In this document: positions 19,564 through 44,890 of the stretch, piece by piece
How the letters are laid out: every line of letters starts with the position of its first letter
Numbering within the stretch: position 1 is the stretch's first letter
NCBI RefSeq assembly: GCF_000829465.1
Contig: NZ_JXAL01000001.1
Location: 372,001-436,000, forward strand
Direction of reading: 5' to 3'
Length of the DNA: 64,000 bases
Source of the DNA: Cohnella kolymensis
Lineage (GTDB): Bacteria > Bacillota > Bacilli > Paenibacillales > Paenibacillaceae
Notes under the pieces: model-generated
Told to the model about the DNA's origin: nothing
Database searches by the model: none
What the model saw: only the letters and a program-made list of their open reading frames with translations
Translations under genes and position numbers: made by a program

Positions 19564-19765
19564 GTTAGTCTACTTTCCGTACTATCTCCGCCTTTTGCTC
19601 CCACTCTAGCCCTCAGTTAGTCTATTTTCCATACTATCTCCGCCGTCTGCCCCTCCTCTAGCCCTCAGTTAGTCTATTTTTTAGACTATCTCCGCCATTT
19701 TCCCTTACTCTAGACCCGCGTTAGTCTATTTTTTGTATTATTTCCGCCATCTGCCCCTCCTATCT
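19564..19765. repeat. Tandem array, 52-bp period, four units (family A)
   Basis: Four units start with GTTAGTCTA at 19564, 19616, 19668 and 19720, an exact 52-bp spacing. Each unit has a palindromic core (one copy reads AGTCTA-TTTTT-TAGACT) followed by ATCTCCGCC and a C-rich linker ending CTCTAGCCC. The same family occurs in the opposite orientation at 39.1 kb. It lies between convergent sodA and mutY. 19467-19560 is C-rich but shows no gene. Confidence 0.9.
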
Positions 19766-19797
19766 CCCCCTCCTCTAGCTGTCCGTCTTTCCAAAAT

Positions 19798-19815
19798 AAA
19801 AAACCGCGTCAGCGG
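19798..19815 (-). terminator. Terminator after mutY
   Basis: Minus strand CCGC-TGAC-GCGG followed by six T, about 25 bp beyond the mutY stop. Confidence 0.7.
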
Positions 19816-19837
19816 CTGCAAAAAAAACGGCGCACTG

Positions 19838-20953
19838 TCACGGTTTAGATGGCTTGTACATGCCAATAAAGTATTGCGTTAACACTTTGCGAAAAACATT
19901 CGGCCACACATAGTTTTCAAAATCATCCGGTCCGACCCATTGATAATGCGGCGGCAAGATCGCACTCTCTTCAGCCTGAAGCACGGCACTCATCACCCGG
20001 ATGTTCCAGTGCAGGTGAGTGAACGTATGCTGCGCATCGCCTATATGATCCACAGCCTTTATCATTAAGCCTTCCTGCGCGAATTCCTGCTCAAGCCACG
20101 AACAGCCGGATTCCACCGAGTCCCACACGGACTGACCGGGAGCTTCCAGATGAGGCAATTCCCACATCCGTGCTAAAAGTCCGGTCTTAGGACGCTGCCT
20201 GACAAGAACTTTACCGGATCGGATGCCCGTTCCCTCCACTAACGCAGCTAGTCTAAGTACGAATTTAGGCGGCTTCGCTTTTGTTTTTACCGGCAGTTCC
20301 GACTGGCGCCCCTGCAATCTCGCCGAGCACATTTCCCGTACAGGGCAGGTCGGGCATGCTGGAGACTTCGGAGTACAGATCATGGCTCCTAGTTCCATCA
20401 AGGCTTGGTTGAAATCCGCAGCTTTGCCATGGGGAATAAGCTCTTTTGCCACCCCCTCGATGCGGACGCGCGTGGCCGGGCGGGCGATGTCATCTTCCAG
20501 TCCAAAAAACCTGGAAAGAACCCGCATCACATTCCCATCCACCGCAGGCTCCGGCTGATCAAATGCAATGCTTAAAATCGCGCCCGCGGTGTAAGGTCCG
20601 ACCCCTTTTAAACCCGATACTTCTTCTTTCAGTCTGGGAACTTCGCCTCCGTACCGGTCCACCACTTCCCGCACGGCAGATTGCAGGTTGCGCGCCCGGG
20701 AGTAGTAGCCCAATCCTTCCCAATGCTTGAGCACCTCTTCTTCGGGCGCTTCGGCCAATTGCCGGACGGAAGGAAACCGGTCGACAAAACGGTTGAAATA
20801 AGGAATGACCGTATCCACACGAGTCTGTTGCAGCATGATTTCGGACACCCAGATATGGTATGGGTCCCGTGTCCGCCGCCAAGGCAGATCCCGGCGCTCC
20901 TTCTCGTACCAACGAACGAGCTCGCTGCTGAAATAATGCTTGTTGTTACTCAC
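19838..20953 (-). CDS. mutY: A/G-specific adenine DNA glycosylase
   Basis: 371 residues. Removes adenine mispaired with 8-oxoguanine. The HhH-GPD domain includes MLQQTRVDTVIPYFNRFV and LKGVGPYTAGAILSIAF; the catalytic Asp is in PAVDGNVMRVLSR. The 4Fe-4S loop CTPKSPACPTCPVREMC follows, then a C-terminal NUDIX-like 8-oxoG recognition domain with MWELPHLE. The start is GTG overlapping the AraC stop by four bases (GTGA), so it is translationally coupled to a regulator, which is an unusual partner. Confidence 0.96.
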   Translation of the reverse strand: MSNNKHYFSSELVRWYEKERRDLPWRRTRDPYHIWVSEIMLQQTRVDTVIPYFNRFVDRFPSVRQLAEAPEEEVLKHWEGLGYYSRARNLQSAVREVVDRYGGEVPRLKEEVSGLKGVGPYTAGAILSIAFDQPEPAVDGNVMRVLSRFFGLEDDIARPATRVRIEGVAKELIPHGKAADFNQALMELGAMICTPKSPACPTCPVREMCSARLQGRQSELPVKTKAKPPKFVLRLAALVEGTGIRSGKVLVRQRPKTGLLARMWELPHLEAPGQSVWDSVESGCSWLEQEFAQEGLMIKAVDHIGDAQHTFTHLHWNIRVMSAVLQAEESAILPPHYQWVGPDDFENYVWPNVFRKVLTQYFIGMYKPSKP

Positions 20954-21822
20954 TTAAGGCCGCTCCCTCCCTTAAGCTGAGCGCCGGAAGAGCCGGCTGC
21001 CGCCTGTTTGCGGTATCGGCTGGGTGTCAATCCGGTCTGGGCTTTGAACATGCGCGAAAAATAATAGATTTGCATACCCACCCGACACGCGACGTCAGAC
21101 ACATTACACTCCGGCTGCAAAAGCAGAGCCTTGGCTGTTTCCATCCGCCGCTGGTTCACATACTGTATCGGTGAGCAGCCCAAAATCCCCTTGAAGAACA
21201 CGATGAAGTAGTTCGGATGCAGAAAAACCTGTTTAGCCAAATCTTCCACCGTAATGTTATCCGCCAAATGCTCGTCTATATATTTAAGTACAATATCAAT
21301 CTTTTGCAAATCCTGGGTCGGAGATCCTTCCTGAATAATACCGGGCAAATGCTCCAAAAACACGCTGACCAGCTCCAGCATGCAGGCTTTGATACGCAGC
21401 CTTGAAGTTAAGTGATCCCGCGCCATCTGCTCGATTAACTGGTCGAAGAGCGCCGAAGTTGATTGAAAATCGGACACCTGAAGGTAAAATGGAATCTTCA
21501 GCGTGCGGTACAAGTCGCGATCCCCGTATGTTCCCCGAAAATGACACCATTGTATCGTCAGCGAAGCATCCGGTTCTACGGAAATTCGATGTGACATTCC
21601 GGACAGCAGAATACAGAACATTCCCTTCACGAGAGGAATCTCCTTACCCTGCACGATCAAGCGCCCTTCTCCTTCTCTGACGAAAAGAAACCGGTCGCAA
21701 TCATATGTAATTTCGCGTTCTTTCAGAGAGGAGCGGCTGACCTGCGTTTCAGAAGCAGCTGCAACTTCAATCTGCATGTGCTCCAAATGTTTCATCATGA
21801 TAGTCAAATAAGTCGTCGTCAT
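20950..21822 (-). CDS. AraC-family transcriptional regulator
   Basis: 290 residues. A cupin-like sensing domain in the first ~140 residues (CDRFLFVREGEGRLIVQGKEI) is followed by two AraC helix-turn-helix motifs (VEDLAKQVFLHPNYFIVFFK and VSDVACRVGMQIYYFSRMFK). The start at 21822 is preferred because GGGGAGC is seven bases upstream; 18 further codons are open. Related regulators respond to sugars. It is co-transcribed with mutY, with no transporter or sugar enzyme beside it, so its target is unclear. Confidence 0.88.
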   Translation of the reverse strand: MTTTYLTIMMKHLEHMQIEVAAASETQVSRSSLKEREITYDCDRFLFVREGEGRLIVQGKEIPLVKGMFCILLSGMSHRISVEPDASLTIQWCHFRGTYGDRDLYRTLKIPFYLQVSDFQSTSALFDQLIEQMARDHLTSRLRIKACMLELVSVFLEHLPGIIQEGSPTQDLQKIDIVLKYIDEHLADNITVEDLAKQVFLHPNYFIVFFKGILGCSPIQYVNQRRMETAKALLLQPECNVSDVACRVGMQIYYFSRMFKAQTGLTPSRYRKQAAAGSSGAQLKGGSGLK

Positions 21823-21985
21823 GTAGAGTGCTCCCCGTGTTCTTGCGAGAAATAACGTTTCCCATATACCATCCATTATACGTTAGTAGACCTACAAGCG
21901 TAAATTTGCAAAAAGATATTTTGTTATCCAAATTATGTATATACAAAAAGCCCGATTGGTTGGCTCTCTATGCGGGCTGGCGAGA

Positions 21986-22375
21986 CTATGACTCGATGAT
22001 CGCGGTGGCCGCGGCCAAAGAGCGTTCGTGACTGATGGCTACGTGTATATGAAATGTTTTGTCCGTCCATTGCAGCCTGCTGACGGCTGCTTCGGACAAG
22101 GTGCAGTGCGGTTTACCTTGACGATCAGATAACAACTCAATGTCTTGAAAACCGACGACTCTGCCAATGCCGCATCCTAAAGCTTTAGCGGCAGCTTCTT
22201 TGGCGGCGAACCTGCCGGCGATAAACTCCAATGCGCGGCGCGCAGGCAGCGCCGACCATCTGGAACGTTCCTGCACCGTCAGTATTCTGGCCGCGAAGCG
22301 TTCCTTGCTTGGCCCTGCCATTATGCCCGCGATGCGCTCCAACTCGACGACGTCCAACCCGACTCCGACAATCAT
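21986..22375 (-). CDS. acpS: Holo-[acyl-carrier-protein] synthase
   Basis: 129 residues. Transfers 4'-phosphopantetheine from CoA to acyl carrier protein. The Mg-binding Asp is in GVGLDVVELERI and the Glu/Lys in GRFAAKEAAAKALGCGIG, both diagnostic. It starts six bases after nadE. No separate promoter is seen, so it is probably co-transcribed with nadE. Confidence 0.96.
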   Translation of the reverse strand: MIVGVGLDVVELERIAGIMAGPSKERFAARILTVQERSRWSALPARRALEFIAGRFAAKEAAAKALGCGIGRVVGFQDIELLSDRQGKPHCTLSEAAVSRLQWTDKTFHIHVAISHERSLAAATAIIES

Positions 22376-22381
22376 ACCGTC

Positions 22382-23191
22382 TTAAATGCCGGGGATAGGC
22401 ACGCGCTTATGCTGTGTACGTCGGTAATGTTTCTCCAAAGTTTCGCGCGCCTTCGGATCGATTTCTTTACCTTCCAAATAATCGCTGTTGTCGTCATAGC
22501 TGACTCCCAATTCGCCTTCATCCGTTTGGCCTTCCCACAACCCGGCAGTCGGCGCTTTATTGAGTACTGACTCGGGAACGCCAAGGCGCTTGCCGATCTG
22601 GCTGATTTGACGTTTGTTCAAGCTGCTCAGCGGCGTGATGTCGACAGCTCCGTCACCCCATTTGGTGAAGAAACCGGTCAACGCTTCAGATGCATGGTCG
22701 GTGCCCACTACCAGCAGATTCAGGTCAAAAGCCAGCGCATATTGAACGACCATCCGAGTGCGCGCTTTTACATTGCCCTTGCCTCCACGGCTTAGGTGGC
22801 GCGACATATCCATTGCTTTGAATGCGTACTCCGTTTCCAGCACAATCTCATCCACCGCTTCAGCGATGTTCGTTTCCACTTTATATTTCAGATCGAACGC
22901 ATCCGCGACGGCATAGCTATGTTCGATATCCTCTTGCTCTTCATAGGGCTGGAAGACACCGAGCGTCATATATTCCTTACCGGTTTCCTGCGACAGCTCG
23001 TCCGTCGCCCGCTTGCATAATCCGGTGGCCACAGCGCTGTCGAGGCCTCCGCTTATCGCAATCAGCAGCCCTGATGTACCTGATTGCTTGATATAATCCT
23101 TAAGGAAGTCCACCCGCCGCTTGATCTCCTCATCCACATCGATCGTCGGCTTGACACCCAGCTTTGCAATAATTTCCTGCTGCAAAGACAT
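22382..23191 (-). CDS. nadE: Ammonia-dependent NAD+ synthetase
   Basis: 269 residues, the length of the Bacillus NH3-dependent enzyme, with no glutaminase domain. The ATP pyrophosphatase P-loop is LIAISGGLDSAVATGLCKRA. KGNVKARTRMVVQYALA and VVGTDHASEALTGFFTKWGD are the NaAD and product-binding regions. Makes NAD+ from deamido-NAD+. AGGAGGAATGAGAG precedes the ATG. A tandem repeat array lies directly upstream. Confidence 0.97.
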   Translation of the reverse strand: MSLQQEIIAKLGVKPTIDVDEEIKRRVDFLKDYIKQSGTSGLLIAISGGLDSAVATGLCKRATDELSQETGKEYMTLGVFQPYEEQEDIEHSYAVADAFDLKYKVETNIAEAVDEIVLETEYAFKAMDMSRHLSRGGKGNVKARTRMVVQYALAFDLNLLVVGTDHASEALTGFFTKWGDGAVDITPLSSLNKRQISQIGKRLGVPESVLNKAPTAGLWEGQTDEGELGVSYDDNSDYLEGKEIDPKARETLEKHYRRTQHKRVPIPGI

Positions 23192-23249
23192 CTCTCATTC
23201 CTCCTATGGTTGCGGGGGCAAGATGCTGTTGAGCCCCTCTTATATTTAC

Positions 23250-23385
23250 GTATGTAAGGCGGTTTTGCAGCCTTACAGCTCGGTTCGCGAGCGGTTTGCA
23301 TCCTGTAAGGCTGATAGTTAGCCTTACAGCTCGGTCGCGAGCGGTTTGCATCCCTGTAAGTCCGGTCGTCAGCTTTACAGCGCAA
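23250..23385. repeat. Tandem array, 51-bp period, about three units (family D)
   Basis: TGTAAG recurs at 23253, 23304 and 23355 and TTACAGC at 23273, 23324 and 23375, both at 51 bp. The core is a palindrome (GTAAGGCT-GATAGTT-AGCCTTAC). The linker contains a second small palindrome (GCTCG/CGAGC) and GGTTTGCATCC. It lies in the ~300-bp gap upstream of nadE and after the bacilliredoxin terminator. Confidence 0.88.
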
Positions 23386-23436
23386 TCCGCAGGCGCATTC
23401 GCACCGGCCTGGCAGCAACCCGGCTTGTCCGCCTTA

Positions 23437-23484
23437 TAAAAACATCCCGTGGGCTCGGTCATACTGACCGAACGTCCGGGATGT
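23437..23484 (-). terminator. Terminator after the bacilliredoxin gene
   Basis: Minus strand ACATCCCG ... CGGGATGT followed by TTTTA, with an inner GTTCGGTCA/TGACCGAGC stem. Confidence 0.82.
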
Positions 23485-23491
23485 GAGAGTC

Positions 23492-23926
23492 TTACCGGCA
23501 GAAGCGGTCAAAAGCAGCCGTGAGGTCGGCGGCAATGTCGGCAGCGCTGCGGTTCTCGATCTGGTGTCTTTCGATAAAATGGACAAGCTCGCCGTCCTTG
23601 ATCAAGGCAATGGACGGTGAGGAAGGAGGATAAGGTGCGAGATATTCGCGGGCCTTGGCAGTTGCTTCCTTATCTTGTCCGGCGAATACGGTGAACCCGT
23701 GATCCGGCAATACATCGTGCTGCAGCGCTTGTGCAACGCCTGGGCGCGCTTGGCCTGCAGCGCAGCCGCATACGGAGTTGACGACAAGCAGCGAAGTGCC
23801 CGAAGCCGTAGGAAGAGTCTCTTCCACTTCCTCAGGAGTTCTCAATTCTTTAATACCCAGCCGGGTCAGTTCATCACGCATCGGTTGAACCATGTCCAGC
23901 ATATATCTTTCGAAAGACATCGACAT
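23492..23926 (-). CDS. Bacilliredoxin, BrxA/BrxB family
   Basis: 144 residues, YphP/YqiW family. Reduces mixed disulfides between proteins and bacillithiol. The active-site CGC motif is in LLVVNSVCGCAAGQARPG. The family's FAGQDKEAT and PSIALIKDGELVHFIERH follow. The partner reductase YpdA (Bdr) is at 42.3 kb. GAGGG lies eight bases before the ATG. BrxA and BrxB cannot be told apart here. Confidence 0.93.
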   Translation of the reverse strand: MSMSFERYMLDMVQPMRDELTRLGIKELRTPEEVEETLPTASGTSLLVVNSVCGCAAGQARPGVAQALQHDVLPDHGFTVFAGQDKEATAKAREYLAPYPPSSPSIALIKDGELVHFIERHQIENRSAADIAADLTAAFDRFCR

Positions 23927-24006
23927 ATAGTGCCCTCGCTTTCAGGAGTTCTTTATTCGCGGTGTTTCCGCTTCTTATTATTATACGCCGCGCTGCAAGC
24001 TCCGTC

Positions 24007-24078
24007 AAAAAAAGGAAGCCCGGCGATTGACTTCGGAGCATCTGCAGTTAACCCCCTGCATCTCCGCCGTCACCGGGC
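24007..24078 (-). terminator. Long terminator hairpin after the DUF3905 gene
   Basis: Minus strand GCCCGGTGACGGCGGAGATG and an imperfect complement ending CGCCGGGC, then CC and seven T. Interior mismatches make the stem long but interrupted. Confidence 0.8.
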
Positions 24079-24084
24079 ATTCAT

Positions 24085-24501
24085 CTATGGCTCGTCATGT
24101 ACTTCGGGCACAGGGAAAAATTCATCGTCGTCCGGATCCGAGTCTATCGATGTCTGACGGACGGGATGCATGAATATCGCAGAGGCCGGAGCTATTCCAC
24201 GCTCGAACAGATCGCGATTCTCCTGTGTGCGAAAGCCCACGTCCTTATAGGGATGCACCCATTGATCGCCGGACATGATGGAAGGATCCGTATCTCGGCT
24301 CCACTGTTCCAACGGCGAATCAGGCGACGCGTAATCGTGATCGCCGATCCATACACCGTAATCGTTGACGAACGGCTCACGCGGTCCCGGCTTGTCGCGG
24401 AAATCCGCTCGAAAGTCGATCTCGAACGGATCCAATTGCGGGTCGTCGCGGCCTTGGGCAGGTTCATTGCCGGCATCATACCTGTTCGGATCGTTAGTCA
24501 T
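24085..24501 (-). CDS. DUF3905 family protein
   Basis: 138 residues, soluble, strongly acidic and rich in Asp/Pro. Recognisable family core: WSRDTDPSIMSGDQWVHPYK then DVGFRTQENRDLFERG. It is found in spore-forming Bacilli; no function is established. The ATG at 24501 is chosen because AGAGGA lies nine bases upstream; a GTG lies directly before it. Single gene with its own terminator. Confidence 0.75.
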   Translation of the reverse strand: MTNDPNRYDAGNEPAQGRDDPQLDPFEIDFRADFRDKPGPREPFVNDYGVWIGDHDYASPDSPLEQWSRDTDPSIMSGDQWVHPYKDVGFRTQENRDLFERGIAPASAIFMHPVRQTSIDSDPDDDEFFPVPEVHDEP

Positions 24502-24656
24502 CACACGGCATCCTCTGCCTGTCCATTATGTTCTCGGACTAACCGGTCCGTCGAGTTTCTTATCGTATGCCGGGGACCGCGGATCAGACGGGCTGGCATG
24601 GAACACCCTCCTTATCTGGTTGGATCTTCCTATAGTGTGCACCGGATCGCAGCCAA

Positions 24657-26318
24657 TTACACAGCGATGGCCTCCGGTTTATTGAAGGATACGATAAAAG
24701 TAGTGCCCTTACCCACCATCGACTCTACGCGGATTTTGCCGTTATGGCGTTCCACGATGCTGAGGCACAATGCCAAACCCAGCCCCGTACCGCTCGCTTT
24801 CGTCGTATAGAAAGGCTCGAACAGGCGCTCAAGAGTCTCTGCCGGCATGCCTACACCATTATCTATAACACGCAGCTCTACGGAATCCGCCAAATTCCGT
24901 GTCTCAATGCGCAGAACGCCGCCTTTATCGTTCATCGCTTCCATGCCGTTGCGGGCCAAATTAAGAATTAACTGTTTGATTTCCTTACAGTTAAAGTCCA
25001 ACCAGTCTATGTTCTGACACATCTGCAGTTCAATGGTTTGACCCCTCATGTTCGCGTCTGCCCAAATTAACGGCAGAAGCTCACTGAGCAGATTATGAAG
25101 GTTCGCCGGCTCTTTTTCGATAATACGATTCTGAGCGAGTGACAAGAAGTCGTTAATAATGGCATTTGCCCGGTCCAGTTCTTCCAATACGATGCGAAAA
25201 TAATACTGTTGATCTTCCGAGCCGCGTTCATTCAGGAGCTGCACGAACCCGCGTATGACGGCCATCGGATTGCGAATTTCGTGCGTGATGCTAGCCGCCA
25301 TTTGGCCGACGAGGCTGAGTCTCTCCATCCGGCCGATTTCGTCTTTCAGCAGCTGCAGCTCCGTCACGTCGTGCCCGATAAACAAAATACCTTCCGAACT
25401 GCCGGCAGCAGCATCCTTCACAGGACAACATACGGTGTAGAAGCTTCGCCCGCGCGTCGTGACCATTTCGGTCACCCGCTCTTCCCCTTGCATAACCCTG
25501 CCGACCGGACAAGATTCAAACTGCATATCGATTTTTTCTACCAGATACCCGAAGCTTTCATTGATCACATCAATCCGGTTAACCGGCGACATCAGCTTCA
25601 GAGTGAGATCGTTGACATGTGTGACGAGCCCTTTATCATTCAGGAACACGACTATTAAAGGGGTATTGTCGATAAACTGCTGAAGTCTGCGAACTTCATT
25701 GCCGTAGCTTAATGAAACGTCGCGAACCTCCGCCTGCATCTGCACCCTCTCGAAAGCCATTTCGGTGAAATGGACGGCGGTGCCGGATACAAATAGAACA
25801 GCGAGTCCATAGACCATCGTCAGAAAAATATGAAATAAAATGGTGTTGAATTCGGAATCGGCAATGCTGTACAAATAGGAGAAAAACGCCAACAGCAGCA
25901 TCATTATGCACAGGGTATATGTAAGTTTGATACGACCGCTGCGTGAGCTTCGTCGGAACGCGGCGATGCGGGAAAATAAAACGGGCAGAAAAATAGCTGT
26001 ATCGATATAAAAGATAATATAGTCCAATTCAGTGGACAGTTCGCCGGTGCGAAGGATGACATACACGATCGAGAGGGCAGCGGCAGAAGGAATGCCGCCG
26101 TACAGAGAACCGATCAGCAGGGGAACAAACCGGAAATCAATATGCTGGCCTTGCTCTGTTACTGTGGAGTAATGCATGGTCAGCACCATGGAGAGGGCGC
26201 ACAAAACAGCCAGAAATACGTTTGCATAACGGGTCCGCTCAGCCCTGTCGTGCCAAACCAGGAACAAAAATACAGGAAACAAAGCGATGAGAATCTGGAG
26301 CATCGTGTCTTTCCACAA
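24657..26318 (-). CDS. Membrane-bound sensor histidine kinase, KinB/5TM type
   Basis: About 553 residues. Five to six membrane helices fill the first ~200 residues (MLQILIALFPVFLFLVW, FVPLLIGSLYGGIPSAAALS), matching 5TM-LYT sensors. A PAS domain follows (DNTPLIVVFLNDKGLVTHVN). Then come HisKA with ASITHEIRNPMAVIRGFVQL (phospho-accepting His) and an HATPase with NLARNGMEAM, DNGVGMP and GTGLGLALCLSIVERHNG. The organisation fits phosphorelay kinases such as sporulation KinB. No response regulator is adjacent, which also fits. The start is uncertain: TTG at 26318 is best spaced from GGGGG; GTG at 26327 is possible. Confidence 0.9.
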   Translation of the reverse strand: MWKDTMLQILIALFPVFLFLVWHDRAERTRYANVFLAVLCALSMVLTMHYSTVTEQGQHIDFRFVPLLIGSLYGGIPSAAALSIVYVILRTGELSTELDYIIFYIDTAIFLPVLFSRIAAFRRSSRSGRIKLTYTLCIMMLLLAFFSYLYSIADSEFNTILFHIFLTMVYGLAVLFVSGTAVHFTEMAFERVQMQAEVRDVSLSYGNEVRRLQQFIDNTPLIVVFLNDKGLVTHVNDLTLKLMSPVNRIDVINESFGYLVEKIDMQFESCPVGRVMQGEERVTEMVTTRGRSFYTVCCPVKDAAAGSSEGILFIGHDVTELQLLKDEIGRMERLSLVGQMAASITHEIRNPMAVIRGFVQLLNERGSEDQQYYFRIVLEELDRANAIINDFLSLAQNRIIEKEPANLHNLLSELLPLIWADANMRGQTIELQMCQNIDWLDFNCKEIKQLILNLARNGMEAMNDKGGVLRIETRNLADSVELRVIDNGVGMPAETLERLFEPFYTTKASGTGLGLALCLSIVERHNGKIRVESMVGKGTTFIVSFNKPEAIAV

Positions 26319-26449: not shown

Positions 26450-26478
26450 ATTCTTTTATGGATAACTCACGGCGCTTG

Positions 26479-32476: not shown

Positions 32477-32660
32477 TTAGCGGGAAATCCTCCTGCTAAT
32501 TTCCTCTACTCAGGCTGTTACGGCACATTAGATGGAAATCCTCCCGATAATTCAGCTGGAAACAGCCATTCCAAGCAATTGACAGCCAATTAGATGGCGA
32601 TTTTCCAGTTACTTTGTCCGGGCACGGTGCCACGAATAAATTAGCTGGAGGTTTTCCAGT
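32477..32660. repeat. Tandem array, about 51-bp period, four units (family B)
   Basis: TTAG[CAT][TG]GG recurs at 32477, 32528, 32590 and 32641, spaced 51, 62 and 51 bp. The core is a weak palindrome such as AGCTGGAGGTTTTCCAGTT. It starts 13 bp after the flavoprotein stop and merges into family C on its right. Confidence 0.75.
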
Positions 32661-32704
32661 TGATTGTGCGCTAAGCTGCTGCAGCCACTAACGCGTGCGC
32701 TCGA

Positions 32705-32905
32705 GCCCACCGATGACCGGTTTTTCAGACTAACTCATCCTTCCGCACCTCCTCGAGCCTCGAGATAACCCGTTTTTCCGGTTAACTCAGCCTTGTCCGC
32801 CGCCTCGAGCCCAGAGATAGCCGGCTTTTCCGGTTAACCAAGCCTTCCGCGCCTCCTCGAACCCCGAGATAACCAGTTTTTCCGGTTAACTCAGCCTTGC
32901 TCGCC
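32705..32905. repeat. Tandem array, 52-bp period, four units (family C)
   Basis: TAAC anchors at 32731, 32783, 32835 and 32887 have exact 52-bp spacing. The core is GAGATAACC-loop-GGTTAACTC and the linker contains CTCGAGCCC or CTCGAACCC. The skeleton is the same as in family A (19.6 and 39.1 kb) but with a different stem. Lies between convergent genes. Confidence 0.9.
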
Positions 32906-32913
32906 CCCCCTAA

Positions 32914-37435: not shown

Positions 37436-38596
37436 ATGAGCGCACCGACGGGGGATCAGGCTTTAATAAAAAGAATGAATACGGCGATTGTCTTGGAGTC
37501 CATTCTGCGGGGGGCTCCCCTTTCGCGTGCGCAAATATCGGAACGGAGCGGGTTGAATAAAGCCACGGTGTCGAGTCTCGTTCAGGATTTGATCGATAGC
37601 TCTCTGGTGAGGGAAATCGGGCGGGGCCAATCCAGCGGCGGACGCAAGCCGGTCATGCTCGAATTCATCGCAACGTCCGGATATGCAATCGGCATTGACC
37701 TGGGCGTGAATTACATTCGAGGGGTATTGACCGATTTACAAGGTGCGATTGTGGCCGAAAGAACTTCCGCGCTTCGTCATTCCAAGCCGGAACCTGTGCT
37801 GGAAGAGCTGTGCCGGTGCATTGCCGAATTGATTGCCGAGGCGCCGAAGTGCGCGTACGGCATCGTCGGGATCGGCGTTGGAGTTCCGGGGCTTGTCGAC
37901 GACAACGGCTCGCTGTTATTCGCGCCTAACCTGAAATGGCGGGACGTACCATTAAAACGGCTTCTGTCGGATCAATTCTGTTTACCCGTTACGATCGACA
38001 ATGAAGCCAATGCCGGCGCGCTGGGCGAACAAAAATACGGCGCCGGCCGGCAGATTCCCAACCTCGTCTATGTGAGTGTCGGCATGGGGATCGGAACGGG
38101 ACTCGTTCTGAATAAGTTACTATATAAAGGCGCATCCGGCTTCTCAGGTGAAATGGGACATATTTCGGTGGAAGCTCATGGTAAGCCGTGCAGCTGCGGC
38201 AACCAGGGATGCTGGGAAATGTACGCCTCGGAGCTGGCGTTGCTGGAAAGCGCGCGTCCGCTCGGGTTTGACGATCTGGAAAGCTTGCTTGCTGCGGCGG
38301 CCTCAGGGCGGGAGGATGTTCTCGAGCTGTTTCAGGGCATCGGCGAGTACTTGGGTATAGGCATTGCCAATATCGTTAATGTGTTTAACCCCGATGCCGT
38401 CATCATCGGCAATCGCATGAGCCAAGCGAGGCCTTGGATTGAGGAAACGCTGCGCCAAACGGTGATCCGGCGGGCGCTTGGCTTCCACCTGCGCAACGTG
38501 CATCTACTTTTCGCCGAATTGGGTGAGCGTTCTGCCATGATGGGAGCTGCCGAAATGGCCATTGCCGGCTTTTTCGCCCGATTAAAAACGGTTTGA
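37436..38596 (+). CDS. xylR: Xylose-responsive ROK-family repressor
   Basis: 386 residues. The N-terminal winged helix LSRAQISERSGLNKATVSSLVQDL is followed by the ROK sugar-binding domain: AIGIDLGVNYIRGVLTDL, GVGVPGLVDDNG, VTIDNEANAGALGE and the zinc motif CSCGNQGCWE. Divergent from xylA, with the operator between them. Expected to leave DNA when xylose binds. Matches B. subtilis XylR in length and order. Confidence 0.95.
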   Translation: MSAPTGDQALIKRMNTAIVLESILRGAPLSRAQISERSGLNKATVSSLVQDLIDSSLVREIGRGQSSGGRKPVMLEFIATSGYAIGIDLGVNYIRGVLTDLQGAIVAERTSALRHSKPEPVLEELCRCIAELIAEAPKCAYGIVGIGVGVPGLVDDNGSLLFAPNLKWRDVPLKRLLSDQFCLPVTIDNEANAGALGEQKYGAGRQIPNLVYVSVGMGIGTGLVLNKLLYKGASGFSGEMGHISVEAHGKPCSCGNQGCWEMYASELALLESARPLGFDDLESLLAAAASGREDVLELFQGIGEYLGIGIANIVNVFNPDAVIIGNRMSQARPWIEETLRQTVIRRALGFHLRNVHLLFAELGERSAMMGAAEMAIAGFFARLKTV

Positions 38597-38704
38597 ATGA
38601 AATCGTTTTATGCTGCAAGAAATTTATGGTATAAATAATTATATGTTTATATGAAAATTCAATTAACTAGATGAACGATTCACTGCGGAAAAGAGGTTTC
38701 AACG

Positions 38705-39025
38705 ATGCATGATAAATTGGCGGATATGGCTGAGCTTCTGAAGCTGCTTGGGGATCGGATGCGTCTGGCGATCCTGGGCTTACTGCAGGAGCGCGAGCTG
38801 TGTGTGGGAGATATTGTGGAATTGCTGGGCACAAGCCAACCGAATGCAAGCCAGCATCTGCGGAAACTCAAAAGTGCCGGGCTCGTAAGAGAATACAAGC
38901 GCGGGCAATGGGTGTATTACTCGTTAAACCTGAACGATTTCCCGGATTTGCGAATCTTCTTGTCCCAGCTGCCCGGGCGCAAAGAACGGCTGATTTCCCT
39001 CGCCGAATTACCGGACAGAAAATGA
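38705..39025 (+). CDS. ArsR-family winged-helix regulator
   Basis: 106 residues. LLKLLGDRMRLAILGLLQER and the recognition helix SQPNASQHLRKLKSAGLV identify the family. The alpha-3 motif reads ELCVGDIVELLG; only one cysteine is present where arsenic sensors have ELCVC, so a metal site of that type is unlikely. Single gene. A 52-bp repeat array follows it. Confidence 0.9.
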   Translation: MHDKLADMAELLKLLGDRMRLAILGLLQERELCVGDIVELLGTSQPNASQHLRKLKSAGLVREYKRGQWVYYSLNLNDFPDLRIFLSQLPGRKERLISLAELPDRK

Positions 39026-39126
39026 ATGGTTTCAGACCGAATGATTGATGGTGCAAGTGTGATGCATTTCAACGTTAATTCAAGTTTCAGCGGCGGATGA
39101 ACGTATTAGCGTCAGGGTGCCTCGGC

Positions 39127-39350
39127 AGGCGGAGTTAGTACATAAACTAGACTAACTCTGTGCTCGAACCCGCTCGACAGGCGGAGATCGTACATAAATT
39201 AGACTAACTCGGTGCTGGAACCCACTCTGCAGGCGGAGATAGTCCAAAAACTAGACTAACTCCGTGCTCGAACCCGCTCCACAGGCGGAGATAGTACGCA
39301 AAATAGACTAACTAGATACTCGAACCCGCTCGGCGACGGCAGATAGTATG
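39127..39350. repeat. Tandem array, 52-bp period, four units (family A, reverse orientation)
   Basis: TAGACTAAC recurs at 39148, 39200, 39252 and 39304, an exact 52-bp spacing. Units read GGCGGAGATAGT, loop, TAGACTAACTC, then a linker with GTGCTCGAACCCGCTC. The first unit has perfect outer arms GAGTTAGT/ACTAACTC. This is the reverse complement of the array at 19.6 kb. Between convergent genes; the remainder of 39026-39126 shows no gene. Confidence 0.9.
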
Positions 39351-39379
39351 ATTTACATCGTTGCACACCGGATTACATG

Positions 39380-39408
39380 AAAACTGCCCCCATGTCTGGG
39401 GGCAGTTT
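39380..39408 (-). terminator. Terminator of the His-rich secreted protein gene
   Basis: AAACTGCCCCCA-GACA-TGGGGGCAGTTT on the minus strand, four bases after the stop codon. Confidence 0.85.
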
Positions 39409-39412
39409 CACT

Positions 39413-40156
39413 TTAATGTCCGCCGTGGCGGCCTTTGTGGCCGAAGCCTTTGCCGTTGACGATCTTTTCTGCAATCACCTGGGCATCGACGAGCTTCTTA
39501 TCCGCCTGGGCCTGCGTCAACTTGCCGTCCTTGACCGCTTGATTAACCGCGGAAGTGATCGCAGCTTTTTGCGCTTCGATCAGCTTCTGTACGTCCACCT
39601 TCTGTTCTGCGGCAAGATCGGCCAGCGATTTGCCGTCTCTTAAACCCTGCTTGATCTCGTCGGTCGTTAGGCCGAGAACTTTAGACATTGCGGTGAAATC
39701 CTTGTACACATGAATTCCGCCATGGCCCACTTCACGCAAATGAGGCTGCGAGTCGATGATTTTATCCAGATTGTCGGCGAAATTCTTTTTGTGCTCTGCT
39801 ACCCGCTTGTTGAAGGCGTCGGTCATCGTTTTCTTCAAGGCCTCGCGAGATACTCCCTGCTCCTGAGCAATTTGGGCCAATGTTTTGCCTGCTTGAACCT
39901 TTTCCTTAAAAGCCGCCTCATCCAACTTCAATAAATCCAGCACTTCTTGCGATACGAATCCATGCCTGCCATGTTTCCCATGTTCCCAGCGGCCGTCCAT
40001 CGCAGAACTCTCAACAGCCGTTACACTTGAACTTGTCCCTGCAGTTGATGTCCCTGCGGCCGATGACTCTACAGCGGTTGTCGCCGCATACGCGCTGAGC
40101 GGAATCATTACCGCAAGAGCCGTTGTAATACCGATCAACTTGACGTACTTTGTCAT
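39413..40156 (-). CDS. Secreted protein with two related helical repeats and His/Gly-rich flanks
   Basis: 247 residues. A signal peptide ends at AYAA (about residue 25), then a Ser/Thr/Ala-rich segment. Two related ~45-residue segments follow: VLDLLKLDEAAFKEKVQAGK... and MSKVLGLTTDEIKQGLRDGK..., each going on to LA-IA/LA-EQ-V. The repeats are bordered by GRWEHGKHGRHGF before and GFGHKGRHGGH at the very end, which could bind metal. GGGAGG precedes the ATG. Similar repeat proteins occur in Bacilli without known function. Confidence 0.75.
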   Translation of the reverse strand: MTKYVKLIGITTALAVMIPLSAYAATTAVESSAAGTSTAGTSSSVTAVESSAMDGRWEHGKHGRHGFVSQEVLDLLKLDEAAFKEKVQAGKTLAQIAQEQGVSREALKKTMTDAFNKRVAEHKKNFADNLDKIIDSQPHLREVGHGGIHVYKDFTAMSKVLGLTTDEIKQGLRDGKSLADLAAEQKVDVQKLIEAQKAAITSAVNQAVKDGKLTQAQADKKLVDAQVIAEKIVNGKGFGHKGRHGGH

Positions 40157-40268
40157 TTGATACTACCTCCCTGCTTATGTATGGTCTTACTATACCCATT
40201 ATTGTGTTGTTTCCTTAAAATGGGATAAATAACACATTAACCGCAGATTAGAATTTACCCTTCTAACG

Positions 40269-40314
40269 AAAAAATCGCCTTGCAGCGCGCACAACGGCAT
40301 TCCGCAAGGCGATT
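40269..40314 (-). terminator. Terminator after the Fsr-like transporter gene
   Basis: Minus strand AATCGCCTTGC ... GCAAGGCGATT followed by six T, three bases after the stop. Confidence 0.9.
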
Positions 40315-40316
40315 CT

Positions 40317-41540
40317 CTATATTTTCGGCCGGTCGCTCGGCAGCAACATCGCAAACAGCCCGCAAAGTGGAAGCACACTGCAAAACCACATTACCGGCTG
40401 CAGGCCGAACACGTCTGCGGCTTTTCCCAGAACAACGGCTCCGATCGCCCCCATCCCGAAGGCCAAGCCGGTCGTCAGCCCCGACGCCATCCCGACTTTC
40501 GCGGGCATGAGAAACTGGGCATACACGACAGCGACGGAAAATCCGGAAAGAACGACGAATCCAAGCACTGTGATAAGCGGATACACCCAGAACAACGGCA
40601 GATGCGGCAGTATGAGTGAGAACGGCGCCGCTCCGGATATCGAGAACACGATCATATTTCTTAGCCCGAACCGGTCTGCCAGCACGCCCCCGAAATAAGT
40701 ACCCAGCACACCGGCAGCTAGAAAAAGAAACACCGGGATTTGAGCTTGCTGAACGGTGAGCCCGTAGTGCTCTTGCAAGAAAAACTGATAATAACTGCTG
40801 ATCCCGGAATGATACCAAGAGCGTGCGAACACGAGAAAAACCAACACTCCCATTGCGAATTTTACCCGGGGATGATTCGCCACAGTGAATACAGTGCTTC
40901 CATCCGGCGATGCCGCGTCGGATCGCTTAAGTTCCCACTCCGCAAGCTTCGACTTGTACCAAGGCAGAAGGCCGAACGAGACGGCGATCGCAAAAGCTGC
41001 AAGCAGCGTGCCCCATATGGCGCCGGACTGTCCGAGCGGAACGAAGATGAACACCGTCATGAGCGGAGCCAGCGAGCTGCCCGCGTTACCGCCGACCTGA
41101 AACACCGACTGCGCAAATCCGCGCTTGCTGCCTGCCGCAAAATATACAACTCTCGATCCTTCAGGGTGAAAAATCGCGGAACCGAATCCGATAAACATGA
41201 CCGCAAACAAAACGTACCAGAAGCTTGGGGCGAAAGCGATCCCGACCATACCCAGAAGACTCAGCGACATCGCTATCGGAAGCAGGTTGGATCGTGAACG
41301 CTTGTCCGAATAAGCTCCGACAGCGGGCTGCATGACCGATGAGGTCATATTCAGCATAAATCCGATCCATCCCACTTGAGCATAAGACAGGTCCAGCGTT
41401 TTTTCGAGAATCGGATACATTGCCGGAATGACGGCCTGCATCGAGTCGTTCATCATATGAATGAGGCTGATCGACAGCAATACAGGCAGCACGGCTGCCG
41501 TCGATGCCGCCGTCCGGGTTTGGGCAACTGAAGAAGCCAA
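40317..41540 (-). CDS. MFS transporter, fosmidomycin-resistance (Fsr) type
   Basis: 407 residues, twelve predicted membrane helices. The segment LLSISLIHMMNDSMQAVIPA and YPILEKTLDLSYAQVGWIGF are typical of the Fsr group; GAYSDKRSRSNLLPIAM is the loop 2-3 motif. Known relatives export fosmidomycin or other drugs, but the substrate here is unknown. Start is TTG with GGGGGAACG upstream. It is divergent from the PadR gene, which could regulate it. Confidence 0.88.
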   Translation of the reverse strand: MASSVAQTRTAASTAAVLPVLLSISLIHMMNDSMQAVIPAMYPILEKTLDLSYAQVGWIGFMLNMTSSVMQPAVGAYSDKRSRSNLLPIAMSLSLLGMVGIAFAPSFWYVLFAVMFIGFGSAIFHPEGSRVVYFAAGSKRGFAQSVFQVGGNAGSSLAPLMTVFIFVPLGQSGAIWGTLLAAFAIAVSFGLLPWYKSKLAEWELKRSDAASPDGSTVFTVANHPRVKFAMGVLVFLVFARSWYHSGISSYYQFFLQEHYGLTVQQAQIPVFLFLAAGVLGTYFGGVLADRFGLRNMIVFSISGAAPFSLILPHLPLFWVYPLITVLGFVVLSGFSVAVVYAQFLMPAKVGMASGLTTGLAFGMGAIGAVVLGKAADVFGLQPVMWFCSVLPLCGLFAMLLPSDRPKI

Positions 41541-41663
41541 TTTCGTTCCCCCTTGATGAATGTTGATAATATGTCTGTATTTACATATAATAAGGAGTAA
41601 AAACCAATCATACTACTCTGGCATTTCGGTGTCAAAGCGTACAAATCGACAGGAGAACTGAAA

Positions 41664-42205
41664 ATGAACACTCTCTCTTACGGGTTGCTGAGTTTTCTAA
41701 CCCAGTCATCCTTTTCCGGATATGATCTGATGCTCAAAATACAACCTTTCTGGCCCGCCAAGCACAGCCAAATTTATCCGTTGCTGGCCAATCTCGAGAA
41801 AGAAGAATATGTTCGATATGAGCACGTCGCTCAGAGCGATAAGCCGGATAAAAAGGTTTACTCCCTCACCGAGAAAGGAACGCAGGCGCTCCAACAATGG
41901 CTCGCCGAGCCGGCCTCAGATCCGGTAACCCGCGACGAGCTGATGTTGAAAGCTTACTGCCTGTCGCTTGTTGAACCGCGAATTGCGAGGAAGCTGTTCA
42001 CCGGCCGGTTGGAGCACTACCGAGCCAAAATGCGAAGCTTTGAGGAGAAGATTACGCAACTGGAGCAGCGGGGCGGCTTAACGCCGGAGACATCCCTGTC
42101 TACGCTTCCCCTCTGTTCGGTCCGTATATCTTACTGCACAAGGCAATGTCTAATTGCCGGTCCAATATCGAATGGTGCGAGTGGGTGCTTCGGCTTCTGC
42201 CGTGA
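41664..42205 (+). CDS. PadR-family transcriptional regulator (one frameshift)
   Basis: About 180 residues after repair. The winged helix is MNTLSYGLLSFLTQSSFSGYDLM with HSQIYPLLANLEKEEYV and KKVYSLTEKGTQALQQWL. The C-terminal Vir domain carries the dimer helices. At about 42089 one G is missing from GGAGGACATC. Restoring it gives PEDIPVYASPLFGPYILL and a stop at 42205; the unrepaired reading ends in an unrelated Cys-rich tail. AGGAGAAC precedes the ATG. Lies 63 bp before ypdA on the same strand and divergent from the Fsr transporter. Confidence 0.87.
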
Positions 42206-42268
42206 ATTTTAGACATTCCGATTGAACGTGCTACAATAATTGTTAAAAAAAGCAACAGGAGAACAAAT

Positions 42269-43282
42269 ATGAACGAGCAAAAGTTGGAAAGTACAGAAGA
42301 AGTGATCATTATCGGAGCGGGTCCTTGCGGGTTATCCGCAGCGTTGGAGCTTCAAGCCATCGGAATAAATCCTCTGCTCCTCGAGAAAAATGCCGTTGTT
42401 CATTCTATCTATCAATATCCGACCTATATGCAGTTTTTCAGCACCGCGCAGCTTCTCGAGATTGGCGGAATCCAGTTCTCGACACCGAATGAGAAGCCGA
42501 CGCGCCGCGAAGCGCTGCAGTATTACCGTGATGTTGCGCTCCGTCGGGAGCTGCGTATCCGCGCATACGAAGAGGCTGTTTCCCTGTCGCGTACGGAGAA
42601 GGGAATGTTCCGCGTGGAGACAGCCGATCGTTTCGGAGGCGTGCGCATTTACGAGGCTCGTTTCGTAGTTGTCGCGACAGGGTATTTCGATCATCCGAAC
42701 ATGCTTGGAATTCCAGGTGAGGATCTGCCTAAAGTAAACCACTTCTTCGAAGAGGCGCATCCTTATACGGGAATGAAGGTAGCCATTATCGGGGGCAGCA
42801 ATTCGGCGGTCGACGCAGCGATGGAAATTCTCCGTGTCGGCGCCGACATCACGGTGGTCTATCGAGGGGAAGACTATTCGCCAAGTATCAAGCCGTGGGT
42901 CAGGCCGCTTTTCGAGAGCAATGTAGATAAAGGCAGGATCAAGATGCTGTTCGGATCGCGTGTCATCCGGATCGAAGAGCGCACCGTCACCGTGGAATCC
43001 GCTACGGCGGACAGTTCCCCGATGGTCCTCGAAAATGATTTTGTCCTGGCATTGACCGGGTTCCGCCCCGAGCGGAGTCTGCTGACGAATGCAGGTGCGG
43101 AAGTCAACGCCGAGTCGACGGTTCCGGCCTTCGATCCGGCTACCATGGAGACGAATGTCCAGGGGCTCTACATTGCTGGAGTCATTGCAGCCGGACGCGC
43201 GGCCAACGAAATCTTCATCGAGAGCGGACGCTTTCACGGGGCACTCATCGCCAACCACATCAAGGAACTGATCCAGCGCTAA
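42269..43282 (+). CDS. ypdA: YpdA-family bacillithiol disulfide reductase
   Basis: 337 residues. Flavoprotein that uses NADPH to reduce bacillithiol disulfide (also called Bdr). FAD motif EEVIIIGAGPCGLSAALEL; family stretch YPTYMQFFSTAQLLEIGG; NADPH motif KVAIIGGSNSAVDAAMEI; C-terminal GLYIAGVIAAGRAANEIFIE. There is no thioredoxin-reductase CxxC, as expected for YpdA. The bacilliredoxin partner is at 23.5 kb. CAGGAGAAC lies before the ATG. Confidence 0.95.
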   Translation: MNEQKLESTEEVIIIGAGPCGLSAALELQAIGINPLLLEKNAVVHSIYQYPTYMQFFSTAQLLEIGGIQFSTPNEKPTRREALQYYRDVALRRELRIRAYEEAVSLSRTEKGMFRVETADRFGGVRIYEARFVVVATGYFDHPNMLGIPGEDLPKVNHFFEEAHPYTGMKVAIIGGSNSAVDAAMEILRVGADITVVYRGEDYSPSIKPWVRPLFESNVDKGRIKMLFGSRVIRIEERTVTVESATADSSPMVLENDFVLALTGFRPERSLLTNAGAEVNAESTVPAFDPATMETNVQGLYIAGVIAAGRAANEIFIESGRFHGALIANHIKELIQR

Positions 43283-43300
43283 ATTAAGCACGACATCGAG

Positions 43301-43348
43301 AAGGGATAGCTCGTCAGAATTACATCTGATGGTCTATCCCTTTATTTT
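43301..43348 (+). terminator. Terminator after ypdA, overlapping the convergent MFS gene
   Basis: AAGGGATAG ... CTATCCCTT followed by TATTTTT. Its right half lies inside the last codons of the MFS gene on the other strand. Confidence 0.8.
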
Positions 43349-44567
43349 TCACAACTACGGACAAACGTACCGCTTCTCCCAGCCTATAAAAGACGATAGC
43401 ACCCAACCCTACAACCGACATCGTCAAAAACAGCACCGTCCCGTTGTAATGACTAAGCAGGATGCCGCCGATCCAGGGTCCAAGGAAATGCCCGAACTGG
43501 CTGAACGACTTTGCCCCATAATACGTTCCCCGCATACCGTCCGGCGATATCCGGTCGATCAGCACATTTTCCGCAGGGTAGCACAGCATCTCACCAAATG
43601 TAAATACGATCATCGACACAATAAACGTGATCCATCCGGAAGATAACGCAAAGCCGGCATTGCCTAAAGAGTAAAAGAATATGCCTGCGGTTAACACAGT
43701 TAGAGGGGAGTAACGGCCGGACCATTTCGTAAAAGGAATCTGCATAACCACAACGGTGACCGCGTTCACACTCATCATTACGGCGAAAAGAGCGACACCA
43801 TCCGCCAGCTTGCCCCCGACATACTGGGATAGAGTTACCGTCATCTGCGAGTAGCCGACAGCGGTAACAAGCCCGCCCAGCAGGTAATATCTCAGCACCG
43901 AGTCGCGTCTCACTACGTTCCATGCGTGGCGGAACGTGCTGCCGGGGTTCCCGTTCCCTGCGATCTTGTTGATTCCGTATTTATTTAGAAGCAAATAGGT
44001 AGACAAAGCATAAACCAGATAGATACAGCCGGTAATGATAAAAGGAAGGGTACTGTCCAAAGCCGCAAAAACCGCTCCCAGCAGCGGTCCCACGGAAACT
44101 CCGATATTAATGGCCAAATATCGGAGCGAGAATACGTTAAAACGCTTCTCTTTCTCCGTCAAATCCGCCATAAGCGCTTGAGATACAGGCTCATAGAATG
44201 AACGGCAAAGTCCATTCACGAGACTGAGCAGCAGGAACAGGACGGCGCTTTTTACCAGCGCAAAGCCGAGAAACACCGCGCCCCAACCGAACAGCGCTCC
44301 GAGCAGAATTCGTCTGCGGCCGAGCAGGTCTGAAAGTGTGCCTCCGATAAACCCTCCCGCCGTGCCGGCTAATGAGCCTGCTCCAATGACCAGGCCGATC
44401 ATGACCGGGTCCATCTCGGTATTCTTCGCGAGATAAATGGCGAGAAACGGCATGCTCATTGACGCTGCAGCTCTCGCAAGGATGGTTCCAAGCAGCAAAT
44501 AATGAACGACCGGATGATAAGATTTTGCAAATAAAAGAAGTTGGTTATACCATTTACTGTTCGCCAT
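43320..44567 (-). CDS. MFS transporter
   Basis: 415 residues, twelve predicted membrane helices. Loop 2-3 motif GGTLSDLLGRRRILLGALFG and the C-terminal half's CYPAENVLIDRISPDGMRGT and GAKSFSQFGHFLGPWIGG resemble the MdtH/YdeE branch of drug exporters. Start at 44567 (MANSKWYNQ) is chosen because GGAG lies nine bases upstream; 15 more codons are open. Substrate unknown. Confidence 0.88.
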   Translation of the reverse strand: MANSKWYNQLLLFAKSYHPVVHYLLLGTILARAAASMSMPFLAIYLAKNTEMDPVMIGLVIGAGSLAGTAGGFIGGTLSDLLGRRRILLGALFGWGAVFLGFALVKSAVLFLLLSLVNGLCRSFYEPVSQALMADLTEKEKRFNVFSLRYLAINIGVSVGPLLGAVFAALDSTLPFIITGCIYLVYALSTYLLLNKYGINKIAGNGNPGSTFRHAWNVVRRDSVLRYYLLGGLVTAVGYSQMTVTLSQYVGGKLADGVALFAVMMSVNAVTVVVMQIPFTKWSGRYSPLTVLTAGIFFYSLGNAGFALSSGWITFIVSMIVFTFGEMLCYPAENVLIDRISPDGMRGTYYGAKSFSQFGHFLGPWIGGILLSHYNGTVLFLTMSVVGLGAIVFYRLGEAVRLSVVVKNKGIDHQM

Positions 44568-44663
44568 CGATGACTGCTCCACTCTAGTAACTGTTGGATA
44601 GCTTGCATCCAAAAGTATAAACCAGAATCATCCCGCTTGTAAGCCTCTATGCCATGAGAGTAT

Positions 44664-44695
44664 AGAAAGAAGGCCTGTTGCCGGGGCAACAGGCC
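44664..44695 (-). terminator. Perfect hairpin, terminator of the queF-transporter operon
   Basis: GGCCTGTTGCC and GGCAACAGGCC form 11-bp perfect arms with a two-base loop; minus strand continues TTCTTTCT. Separated from the transporter stop by the family E repeats. Confidence 0.75.
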
Positions 44696-44701
44696 GCTGT
44701 G

Positions 44702-44890
44702 TATGCGGACAAAACGGGCTTATCAGCCGGTGTTTGTTAACAATATCCCGCGGATAAAGACAAAACAGGCTTATCAGCATGCATTTGACTTGATATTATC
44801 TTTCATCCCTATCTGATACGCCCAATATGTCCTTAAACGCAGCAATAGTTTATCTATATCCCGTGCATGCGGACAAAACGGGCTTATCAT
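44702..44890. repeat. Degenerate tandem array, about 51-bp period (family E)
   Basis: GGACAAAACGGGCTTATCA or a close copy occurs at about 44707, 44758 and 44871; the first two are 51 bp apart and the third about 113 bp further. An inverted degenerate copy (CTGATACGCCCAATATGTCC) lies at 44813-44832. Cores show weak GATAA/TTATC symmetry. Located between two same-strand genes. Confidence 0.75.

What the first reader, a model, noticed from the sequence alone, without database searches (positions are those of the whole stretch)
19564..44890. Five intergenic arrays share a 51-52 bp period despite different sequences
Arrays at 19.56-19.77, 23.25-23.39, 32.48-32.91, 39.13-39.35 and 44.70-44.89 kb all have units of 51 or 52 bp. 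Each unit is a palindromic core of about 25 bp with a short loop plus a conserved linker of similar length. Anchor positions: 19564/19616/19668/19720; 23253/23304/23355; 32731/32783/32835/32887; 39148/39200/39252/39304; 44709/44760. About 5 turns of B-DNA per unit would put every palindrome on the same helix face. I know of no described element with this rule; the role (protein-binding array, transcription end point, nucleoid anchoring) is open.
Basis: seen in the sequence. Interest (0 to 1): 0.82.

Follow-up and report, generated by a model that had tools for sequence, protein, structure and literature searches.

The report
Replication-oriented 52-bp repeat arrays in Cohnella
This bacterial window carries short non-coding DNA repeats of a kind already described (about 52 bases per unit, whatever the sequence), and comparison with relatives suggests that units are imperfect palindromes held at a fixed distance and pointed in a preferred direction relative to DNA copying, which makes these puzzling repeats testable.

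Summary
The period is real. TRF finds four of the five named arrays at 51 or 52 bp; the fifth rests on one 51-bp interval. They are less independent than claimed: 1 and 4 are one family on opposite strands, 3 is a diverged relative. On the 765-kb contig, lags 51/52 stand out (4 and 7 clusters; no other non-harmonic lag exceeds 3). The genus is Cohnella, not Paenibacillus. The rule itself is published: 52-nt constant-size, variable-sequence satellites of Firmicutes (PMC8161180).

What I did not see in the text read: (1) in nine species 131 of 131 core pairs, free to lie 37-67 bp apart, are 51-53 bp apart, though linkers differ between arrays (61 arrays, 7 species). (2) Arrays prefer convergent gene ends and are rare in divergent gaps. 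(3) They are polar: the T-rich core strand lies opposite the G-rich (leading) strand at 45 of 51 scorable loci (4 mixed), in 17 of 18 convergent gaps, and in 9 of 10 arrays of a closed genome. In this window only 1 of 3 scorable arrays obeys. Mechanism is unproven; I favour DNA-level binding-site arrays.

The parts
19548..19758 (+). Array 1, family A, 4.1 units of 52 bp; cores at 19562-19588, 19614-19640, 19666-19692, 19718-19744, between convergent genes (SOD C-terminal domain, left; MutY-like glycosylase, right)
   Evidence: TRF; cores; genes
23252..23386 (.). Array 2, family B: near-symmetric 27-bp cores CTGTAAGKC...GMCTTACAG at 23252-23278, 23303-23329, 23354-23380, spaced 51; between two minus-strand genes (NAD synthase; disulphide isomerase family)
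   Evidence: genes
32527..32665 (+). Three copies of another imperfect hairpin (family F), spaced 62 and 51 bp, before array 3
32700..32905 (-). Array 3, family D (relative of A): 52 bp, 4.0 units, core GAGTTAACCGG-A5-(C/G)NGGTTATCTC on the minus strand with a T.T mismatch; convergent gap after an HI0933-like flavoprotein gene
   Evidence: genes
39121..39348 (-). Array 4, family A on the minus strand, 4.4 units of 52 bp; convergent gap (ArsR-type regulator, left; 247-aa gene, right)
   Evidence: genes
44699..44889 (+). 'Array 5': three 27-nt copies, spacings 51 and 113; not a regular array
   Evidence: D8; absent from TRF

Best explanation
The arrays are DNA-level multi-site elements. Each unit is one imperfect-dyad site of about 27 bp, repeated at a distance that stays within about 1 bp in most arrays of a species (50, 51 or 52 bp, roughly five helical turns), placed mostly behind genes and pointed in a preferred direction relative to the leading strand. 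Shown: the dyad core, the length rule, the array-specific linkers, the location, the polarity. Inferred: a trans-acting DNA-binding factor reads the core in each species, its neighbouring molecules need a set distance, and its action (spooling, anchoring or clearing DNA between transcription units and replication forks) is directional. Which factor, and what it does, is unknown.
For: Core conserved while linkers are not: in 61 arrays of period 52 (7 of the 9 species) core 1.45 bits per position against 0.27 for the linker; 13 core positions were exact in the search and 17 guided the collection (up to 4 mismatches), but the free positions 10-11 and 17-19 are conserved too. Between arrays linkers mismatch at 0.67 (shuffled 0.72), within an array at 0.158. 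Spacing, free from 37 to 67: 51 (14), 52 (116), 53 (1) of 131 strict pairs; with relaxed cores 236 of 244 same-strand intervals up to 200 bp are 51-53. A different core in a closed genome: 50 bp in 108 of 122 intervals. Family B: position 8 (G/T) and its partner 20 (C/A) vary independently (GC 18, GA 8, TC 10, TA 3; p = 0.72), and B cores pair no better than shuffles (81.8% against 81.4%, 184 of 500), as two half-sites in duplex DNA would. Polarity against GC skew 45:6 with 4 mixed, convergent gaps 17:1. Location: convergent 12 of 91 gaps, same-direction 17 of 599, divergent 2 of 187; on the unselected contig C1 alone 6 of 36, 4 of 243, 0 of 63.
Against: No binding protein is known or was found. 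Several core families coexist in one genome, so one factor would need loose specificity or there are several. A-family cores do co-vary (69.8% paired against 64.2% shuffled, 0 of 500), and so does pair 10/18 of family B (p = 7e-5), as a hairpin would; relatedness inflates this. Period 50 in one species is not a whole five turns. In this window two of the three scorable arrays (32.7 and 39.1 kb) point the other way, as does the one array of G001. In same-direction gaps with lagging-strand genes 5 arrays point with the leading strand and 3 against it, so transcription may set the polarity.
Confidence: 0.42

Rival explanations
1. Replication-born satellites without a host function: a hairpin-forming seed is tandemly duplicated by slippage or template switching on one replication strand, at a unit length set by the replication machinery; arrays survive where they do least harm, between gene 3' ends.
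For: Replication polarity; location in the most tolerant gaps; homogeneous within arrays, different between arrays; 20 of 43 arrays of period 50-53 have a dyad at p <= 0.05 against 0 of 12 other arrays; published partial conservation even between strains of one species (PMC8161180).
Against: Needs an unknown 50-52-nt ruler that works on unrelated cores; does not explain why one core is shared by many loci of a genome whose linkers are unrelated; family C in the same genome keeps no fixed length (44-55).
Confidence: 0.3
2. RNA-level elements: the arrays are transcribed and the hairpins act as 3'-end stabilisers, sponges or small RNAs.
For: Published statement that RNA-seq shows the 52-nt repeats of Bacillus coagulans are transcribed (PMC8161180; passages of PMC8625621); in same-direction gaps the T-strand is antisense to the genes in 26 of 32 arrays; covariation in family A.
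Against: An RNA would not need a spacing fixed to 1 bp; B-family stems as a whole do not co-vary; no Rfam family matches the window's arrays; in convergent gaps, where the flanking genes give no direction, polarity still follows GC skew 17:1.
Confidence: 0.15
3. REP/BIME-like elements moved by a RAYT-type (Y1) transposase.
For: Palindromic units in intergenic, mostly convergent or unidirectional gaps, as reported for REPs (PMC3733652, passages).
Against: No Y1 transposase domain found in the own draft genome (0 matches at E 0.001; 5 of 14 control genomes ring); no GTAG or CGTC tag is apparent at the core edges, where positions are variable.
Confidence: 0.04

Closest known systems
52-nt constant-size tandem repeats (satellites) of Bacillus and other Firmicutes, Subirana & Messeguer 2020/2021 (PMC8161180, parts 1-4 of 5 read; the 2020 J. 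Bacteriol. paper is not held, and is known only through it)
   Same: Non-coding, 51-53 bp, sequence unrelated between species, several families per genome, said to be particularly abundant in Paenibacillus; [quoted passage not shown] strains differ in their arrays
   Different: In the parts read I saw no core/linker split, no free-spacing test, no gene-context count, no replication polarity and no mention of Cohnella
REP / BIME palindromic elements (PMC3733652, passages only)
   Same: Palindromic units repeated in intergenic DNA, preferring convergent and unidirectional gaps
   Different: No tag seen, no RAYT gene found in this genome, head-to-tail arrays of fixed period
Replication-polar sequence signals (KOPS, SRS, Chi; recalled, no call)
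   Same: Orientation biased with respect to the leading strand
   Different: Those are short and dispersed, not palindromes in fixed-period arrays
CRISPR arrays (recalled; the likeness and the differences are also discussed in PMC8161180)
   Same: Conserved core and linkers of near-constant length
   Different: Linkers are repeated within an array, not unique; different lengths

Membership tests
52-nt constant-size satellites of Firmicutes | Non-coding tandem array with unit 51-53 bp | tested here: met
   Arrays 1, 3, 4 (52) and 2 (51); gaps between called genes:
52-nt constant-size satellites of Firmicutes | At least four repeats (the authors' threshold) | tested here: inconclusive
   4.1, 4.0 and 4.4 copies in arrays 1, 3, 4; 2.2 in array 2; array 5 irregular
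52-nt constant-size satellites of Firmicutes | Same size, unrelated sequences across species and families | tested here: met
   31 of 52 non-coding arrays in 2.19 Mb of the own genome and 16 relatives have period 51-52, 34 of 52 have 50-53; 9 more of 50-53 lie in frames my ORF rule called coding (part of the sample was chosen for core matches)
REP/BIME | Palindrome of 20-40 bp in extragenic DNA | tested here: met
   27-bp dyads
REP/BIME | GTAG or CGTC tag beside the palindrome | tested here: not met
   Read from the position table of family A only: edge positions 1-2 and 28-31 are variable (0.2-0.7 bits)
REP/BIME | RAYT (Y1) transposase in the genome | tested here: not met
   0 matches in the own draft genome
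CRISPR | Unique spacers between repeats | tested here: not met
   Within-array linker mismatch only 0.158
CRISPR | cas genes nearby | not tested
   No search made
Known structured RNA (Rfam 15) | Match at the gathering score | tested here: not met
   Two riboswitches elsewhere in the window, none on an array
Replication-polar chromosomal signal | Strand bias with respect to the leading strand | tested here: met
   45:6 loci, 4 mixed; 9:1 in closed genome G009; 10:3 in G012, 10:5 with single hits; in this window 1 of 3

The most novel reading that the evidence does not exclude
The 50-53-bp satellites are a chromosome-wide, replication-polar ruler: sites whose core may drift into any sequence as long as it stays an imperfect, polar dyad, kept a species-specific fixed number of base pairs apart and set between converging genes, read by an unknown protein or machine that travels with or against the replication fork.
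Probability: 0.35. Interest if true: 0.85.

Novelty: new member of a known kind. Interest (0 to 1): 0.6.

Why it matters
The published 52-nt satellites of Firmicutes have a strict length and no explanation. A core with a free linker, a spacing rule that holds when the search allows 37-67 bp, a preference for convergent gene ends, and an orientation tied to the leading strand make them testable: they give a bait (the core), a variable (linker length) and a direction (the replichore). If the polarity holds in a full survey, it links these repeats to replication or to replication-transcription conflict.

Tried and rejected
Coding origin: 52 is not a multiple of 3; open frames through 51-bp arrays are probably a by-product of 51 = 3 x 17. 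Stop-codon insulator (many cores hold TAA/TAG; seen by eye): rejected, because several 51-bp arrays keep one frame open. RAYT/REP: no Y1 gene found. Rfam: nothing on the arrays. Terminators: 16 found against 14.8 expected and 4 against 7.7. Strict helical phasing: a species with 50 and family C with 44-55. Mutational strand bias as the cause of polarity: the T.T mismatch was part of my search pattern, so its frequency in the collected cores is no evidence; but the pattern knows no strand, and a 45:6 ratio would need about 73:27 A to T on the leading strand at both mismatch positions (my arithmetic), whereas array-free intergenic DNA there has an AT skew of 0.038, about 52:48. A stronger local bias inside arrays (their AT skew is 0.237) is not excluded. 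Circular RNA folding of consensus units was less telling (16 of 43 at p <= 0.05) than the dyad score (20 of 43). Site conservation: at the HI0933-like gene 4 of 29 relatives' loci, and at the MutY-like gene 6 of 29, hold a 50-52-bp array of other sequence within 1.5 kb downstream; I did not show that this exceeds the general preference for convergent gaps, nor that all six sit in the same gap. The 3.7-kb identity between contig C5 and C1 that ends inside two arrays may be a duplication or an assembly chimera; the C5 copy was left out of the core counts but is in the array counts.

Biases and dropped rows: own contigs other than C1 (and the first 20 kb of C2-C4) and the G004 and G025 stretches were chosen because they hold core matches; five fetched stretches under 1.8 kb were dropped. 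Arrays of one family are counted separately. Gene calls are my own codon-usage calls, not annotation. Of 69 A arrays, 56 could be placed in a gap. GC skew stands in for the leading strand except in G009, G012 and G006, where dnaA was located and the terminus was taken as the antipode. Orientation in G009 is by best match, in some arrays 1 against 3 mismatches.
Full report
Observation. TRF finds arrays at 19548-19758, 23268-23381, 32700-32905 and 39121-39348 with periods 52, 51, 52, 52. A lag scan 15-299 shows 52 and its multiples in arrays 1, 3 and 4, otherwise only two lags near 1.1 kb, and nothing in three shuffles. Array 5 has three copies of 27 nt at spacings 51 and 113 and TRF does not report it. 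Arrays 1 and 4 are the same family on opposite strands (I1) and array 3 shares their core pattern. On the whole contig (C1, 765 kb) there are 7 clusters at lag 52 and 4 at lag 51, one array counting at both; no other lag from 15 to 259 has more than 3, except the harmonics 104 (5) and 156 (4).

Who it is. The window lies in a 4.34-Mb draft genome of 34 contigs. Relatives G004 and G025, listed as same genus, have contig lengths equal to records of Cohnella sp. AR92 and Cohnella lupini. So the genome is a Cohnella (family Paenibacillaceae). This is inferred; the own record is unnamed.

What was already known. Subirana and Messeguer (PMC8161180; parts 1-4 of 5 read) describe tandem repeats of constant size 52 nt (51-53 in 1886 of 4029 arrays of 176 Bacillus genomes) with species-specific sequences, several families per genome, partial conservation between strains, and particular abundance in Paenibacillus. 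They propose a nucleoid protein or small RNAs and state that RNA-seq shows the repeats of Bacillus coagulans transcribed. Passages of PMC8625621 were seen. The original 2020 paper is not held. The searches listed no paper that I recognised as reporting replication polarity or a core/linker split for these repeats; for most of them I saw only titles and abstract starts, the lists were capped, and subscription journals are mostly missing from the library.

Anatomy. In 2.19 Mb from 17 genomes, 34 of 52 non-coding arrays (score 80 or more, period 15 or more) have period 50-53 (part of this sample was picked for core matches). Of 43 arrays of 50-53 bp tested (score 120 or more), 20 hold a dyad at p <= 0.05, against 0 of 12 other arrays; so a clear dyad is common, not universal. 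Family B cores have fixed outer arms, but position 8 and its partner 20 vary independently (p = 0.72); overall pairing equals shuffles. Position 10/18 does co-vary (p = 7e-5). Family A/D cores (50 distinct, 4 species of this genus) pair more than shuffles and co-vary; positions 4/24 are T.T in 44 of 50, but T.T was in the collecting pattern (up to 4 mismatches allowed). TRF consensus units, found without that pattern, show it independently in the own arrays, G004, G025, G012 and G009 (read by eye).

The length rule, tested without assuming it. A pattern of two neighbouring A cores with a free gap was run against the collection of 84,980 species genomes: 55 stretches in nine species of Cohnella and Paenibacillus (the own genome may be left out there). 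All 131 core pairs lie 51 (14), 52 (116) or 53 (1) bp apart, although 37 to 67 was allowed. Relaxed cores: 236 of 244 same-strand intervals up to 200 bp are 51-53; the rest are 74, 97, 139 (one each) and 102-104 (five). In 61 arrays of period 52 (7 species) the core carries 1.45 bits per position and the linker 0.27; 13 core positions were exact in the search, but free positions such as 10-11 and 17-19 are conserved too. Linkers of different arrays are nearly as different as shuffled ones (0.67 against 0.72), while within an array they differ at 0.158. In the own genome and three relatives, A intervals are 51 (4), 52 (31), 53 (2) plus six at 103-154; own-genome B intervals are 50 (4), 51 (12), 52 (16), 57 (1), 104 (2). 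In the closed genome G009 a different core keeps 50 bp in 108 of 122 intervals. Family C in the own genome has the same kind of array but spacings 44 to 55 (9 intervals) and both strands at 4 of its 7 places on C1, so constant length is not an automatic result of amplification or of the search.

Location. With codon-usage gene calls, 12 of 91 convergent gaps, 17 of 599 same-direction gaps and 2 of 187 divergent gaps of 100 bp or more hold a 50-53-bp array (convergent against rest p = 2e-5); on the unselected contig C1 alone 6 of 36, 4 of 243 and 0 of 63. In the 55 A-core loci the figures are 18 of 28, 27 of 112 and 2 of 40. A cruder gene call gave a weaker result (10 of 107, 15 of 483, 5 of 171; p = 0.005).

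Polarity. The T.T mismatch and the T-rich loop give the A core a direction. In same-direction gaps the T-strand is opposite to the genes in 26 of 32 arrays. Against the GC skew of the locus, arrays masked, 45 loci are opposite, 6 the same, 4 mixed (p = 2e-8; with |skew| 0.04 or more 39:3). In convergent gaps, where the flanking genes give no direction, it is 17:1 against contig skew and 16:2 against the genes beyond the flanks. Loci of one species are not independent of each other. In closed genomes with dnaA located: G009, a different core, 9 arrays opposite to the leading strand and 1 the same, convergent gaps 4 of 4; G012, 10 opposite and 3 the same among arrays with two or more hits (p = 0.09), 10:5 with two single hits; G006, two arrays consistent with each other, single hits 3:1 in the same sense. 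Against a pure replication reading: in same-direction gaps with lagging-strand genes it is 3 opposite to 5 the same. In the own genome 5 of 7 A/D arrays are opposite, and the one G001 array is not; in this window array 1 is opposite, arrays 3 and 4 are not.

Interpretation. A core shared by many loci with unrelated linkers of equal length says that something acts in trans on the core and measures the distance. Independent half-site variation in family B, a tolerance of about 1 bp and rarity in divergent gaps fit DNA binding better than an RNA hairpin. Polarity and gene-end location fit a process tied to the fork, or to the dominant direction of transcription. I put a binding-site array first (0.42), a replication-born satellite with an unknown ruler second (0.30), RNA elements third (0.15).

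Noticed in passing
G000 contig C1 152109-356104 and 749895: A second repeat kind of the same genome (CCTTTTGACGATATCCC...CAGG), spacings 44-55, on both strands at 4 of its 7 places; no fixed length.
   Followed up: partly
window 19604-23381 versus contig C5 end (L044): About 3.7 kb of contig C5 is identical to the window and the identity ends inside arrays 1 and 2; some other contig ends also lie in such arrays. Duplication or assembly chimera.
   Followed up: partly
window 7159-7234 and 46110-46153: c-di-GMP-I-GGC riboswitch and PreQ1 riboswitch on the minus strand (Rfam); the latter lies upstream of minus-strand ORFs that include a Vut_1-family transporter gene at 44915-45466.
   Followed up: no
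L118 (G006) 14620-15932: Three different 51-bp arrays and a 31-bp array within 1.3 kb of one convergent gap.
   Followed up: no
G009:C1 arrays (L263-L272): In the ten places read, this species' period is 50 bp, not 51/52.
   Followed up: yes
window 171-1396: Low-complexity repeats (units of about 12 bp) rich in TTGCC/TTACC/TTTCC patterns (D2).
   Followed up: no
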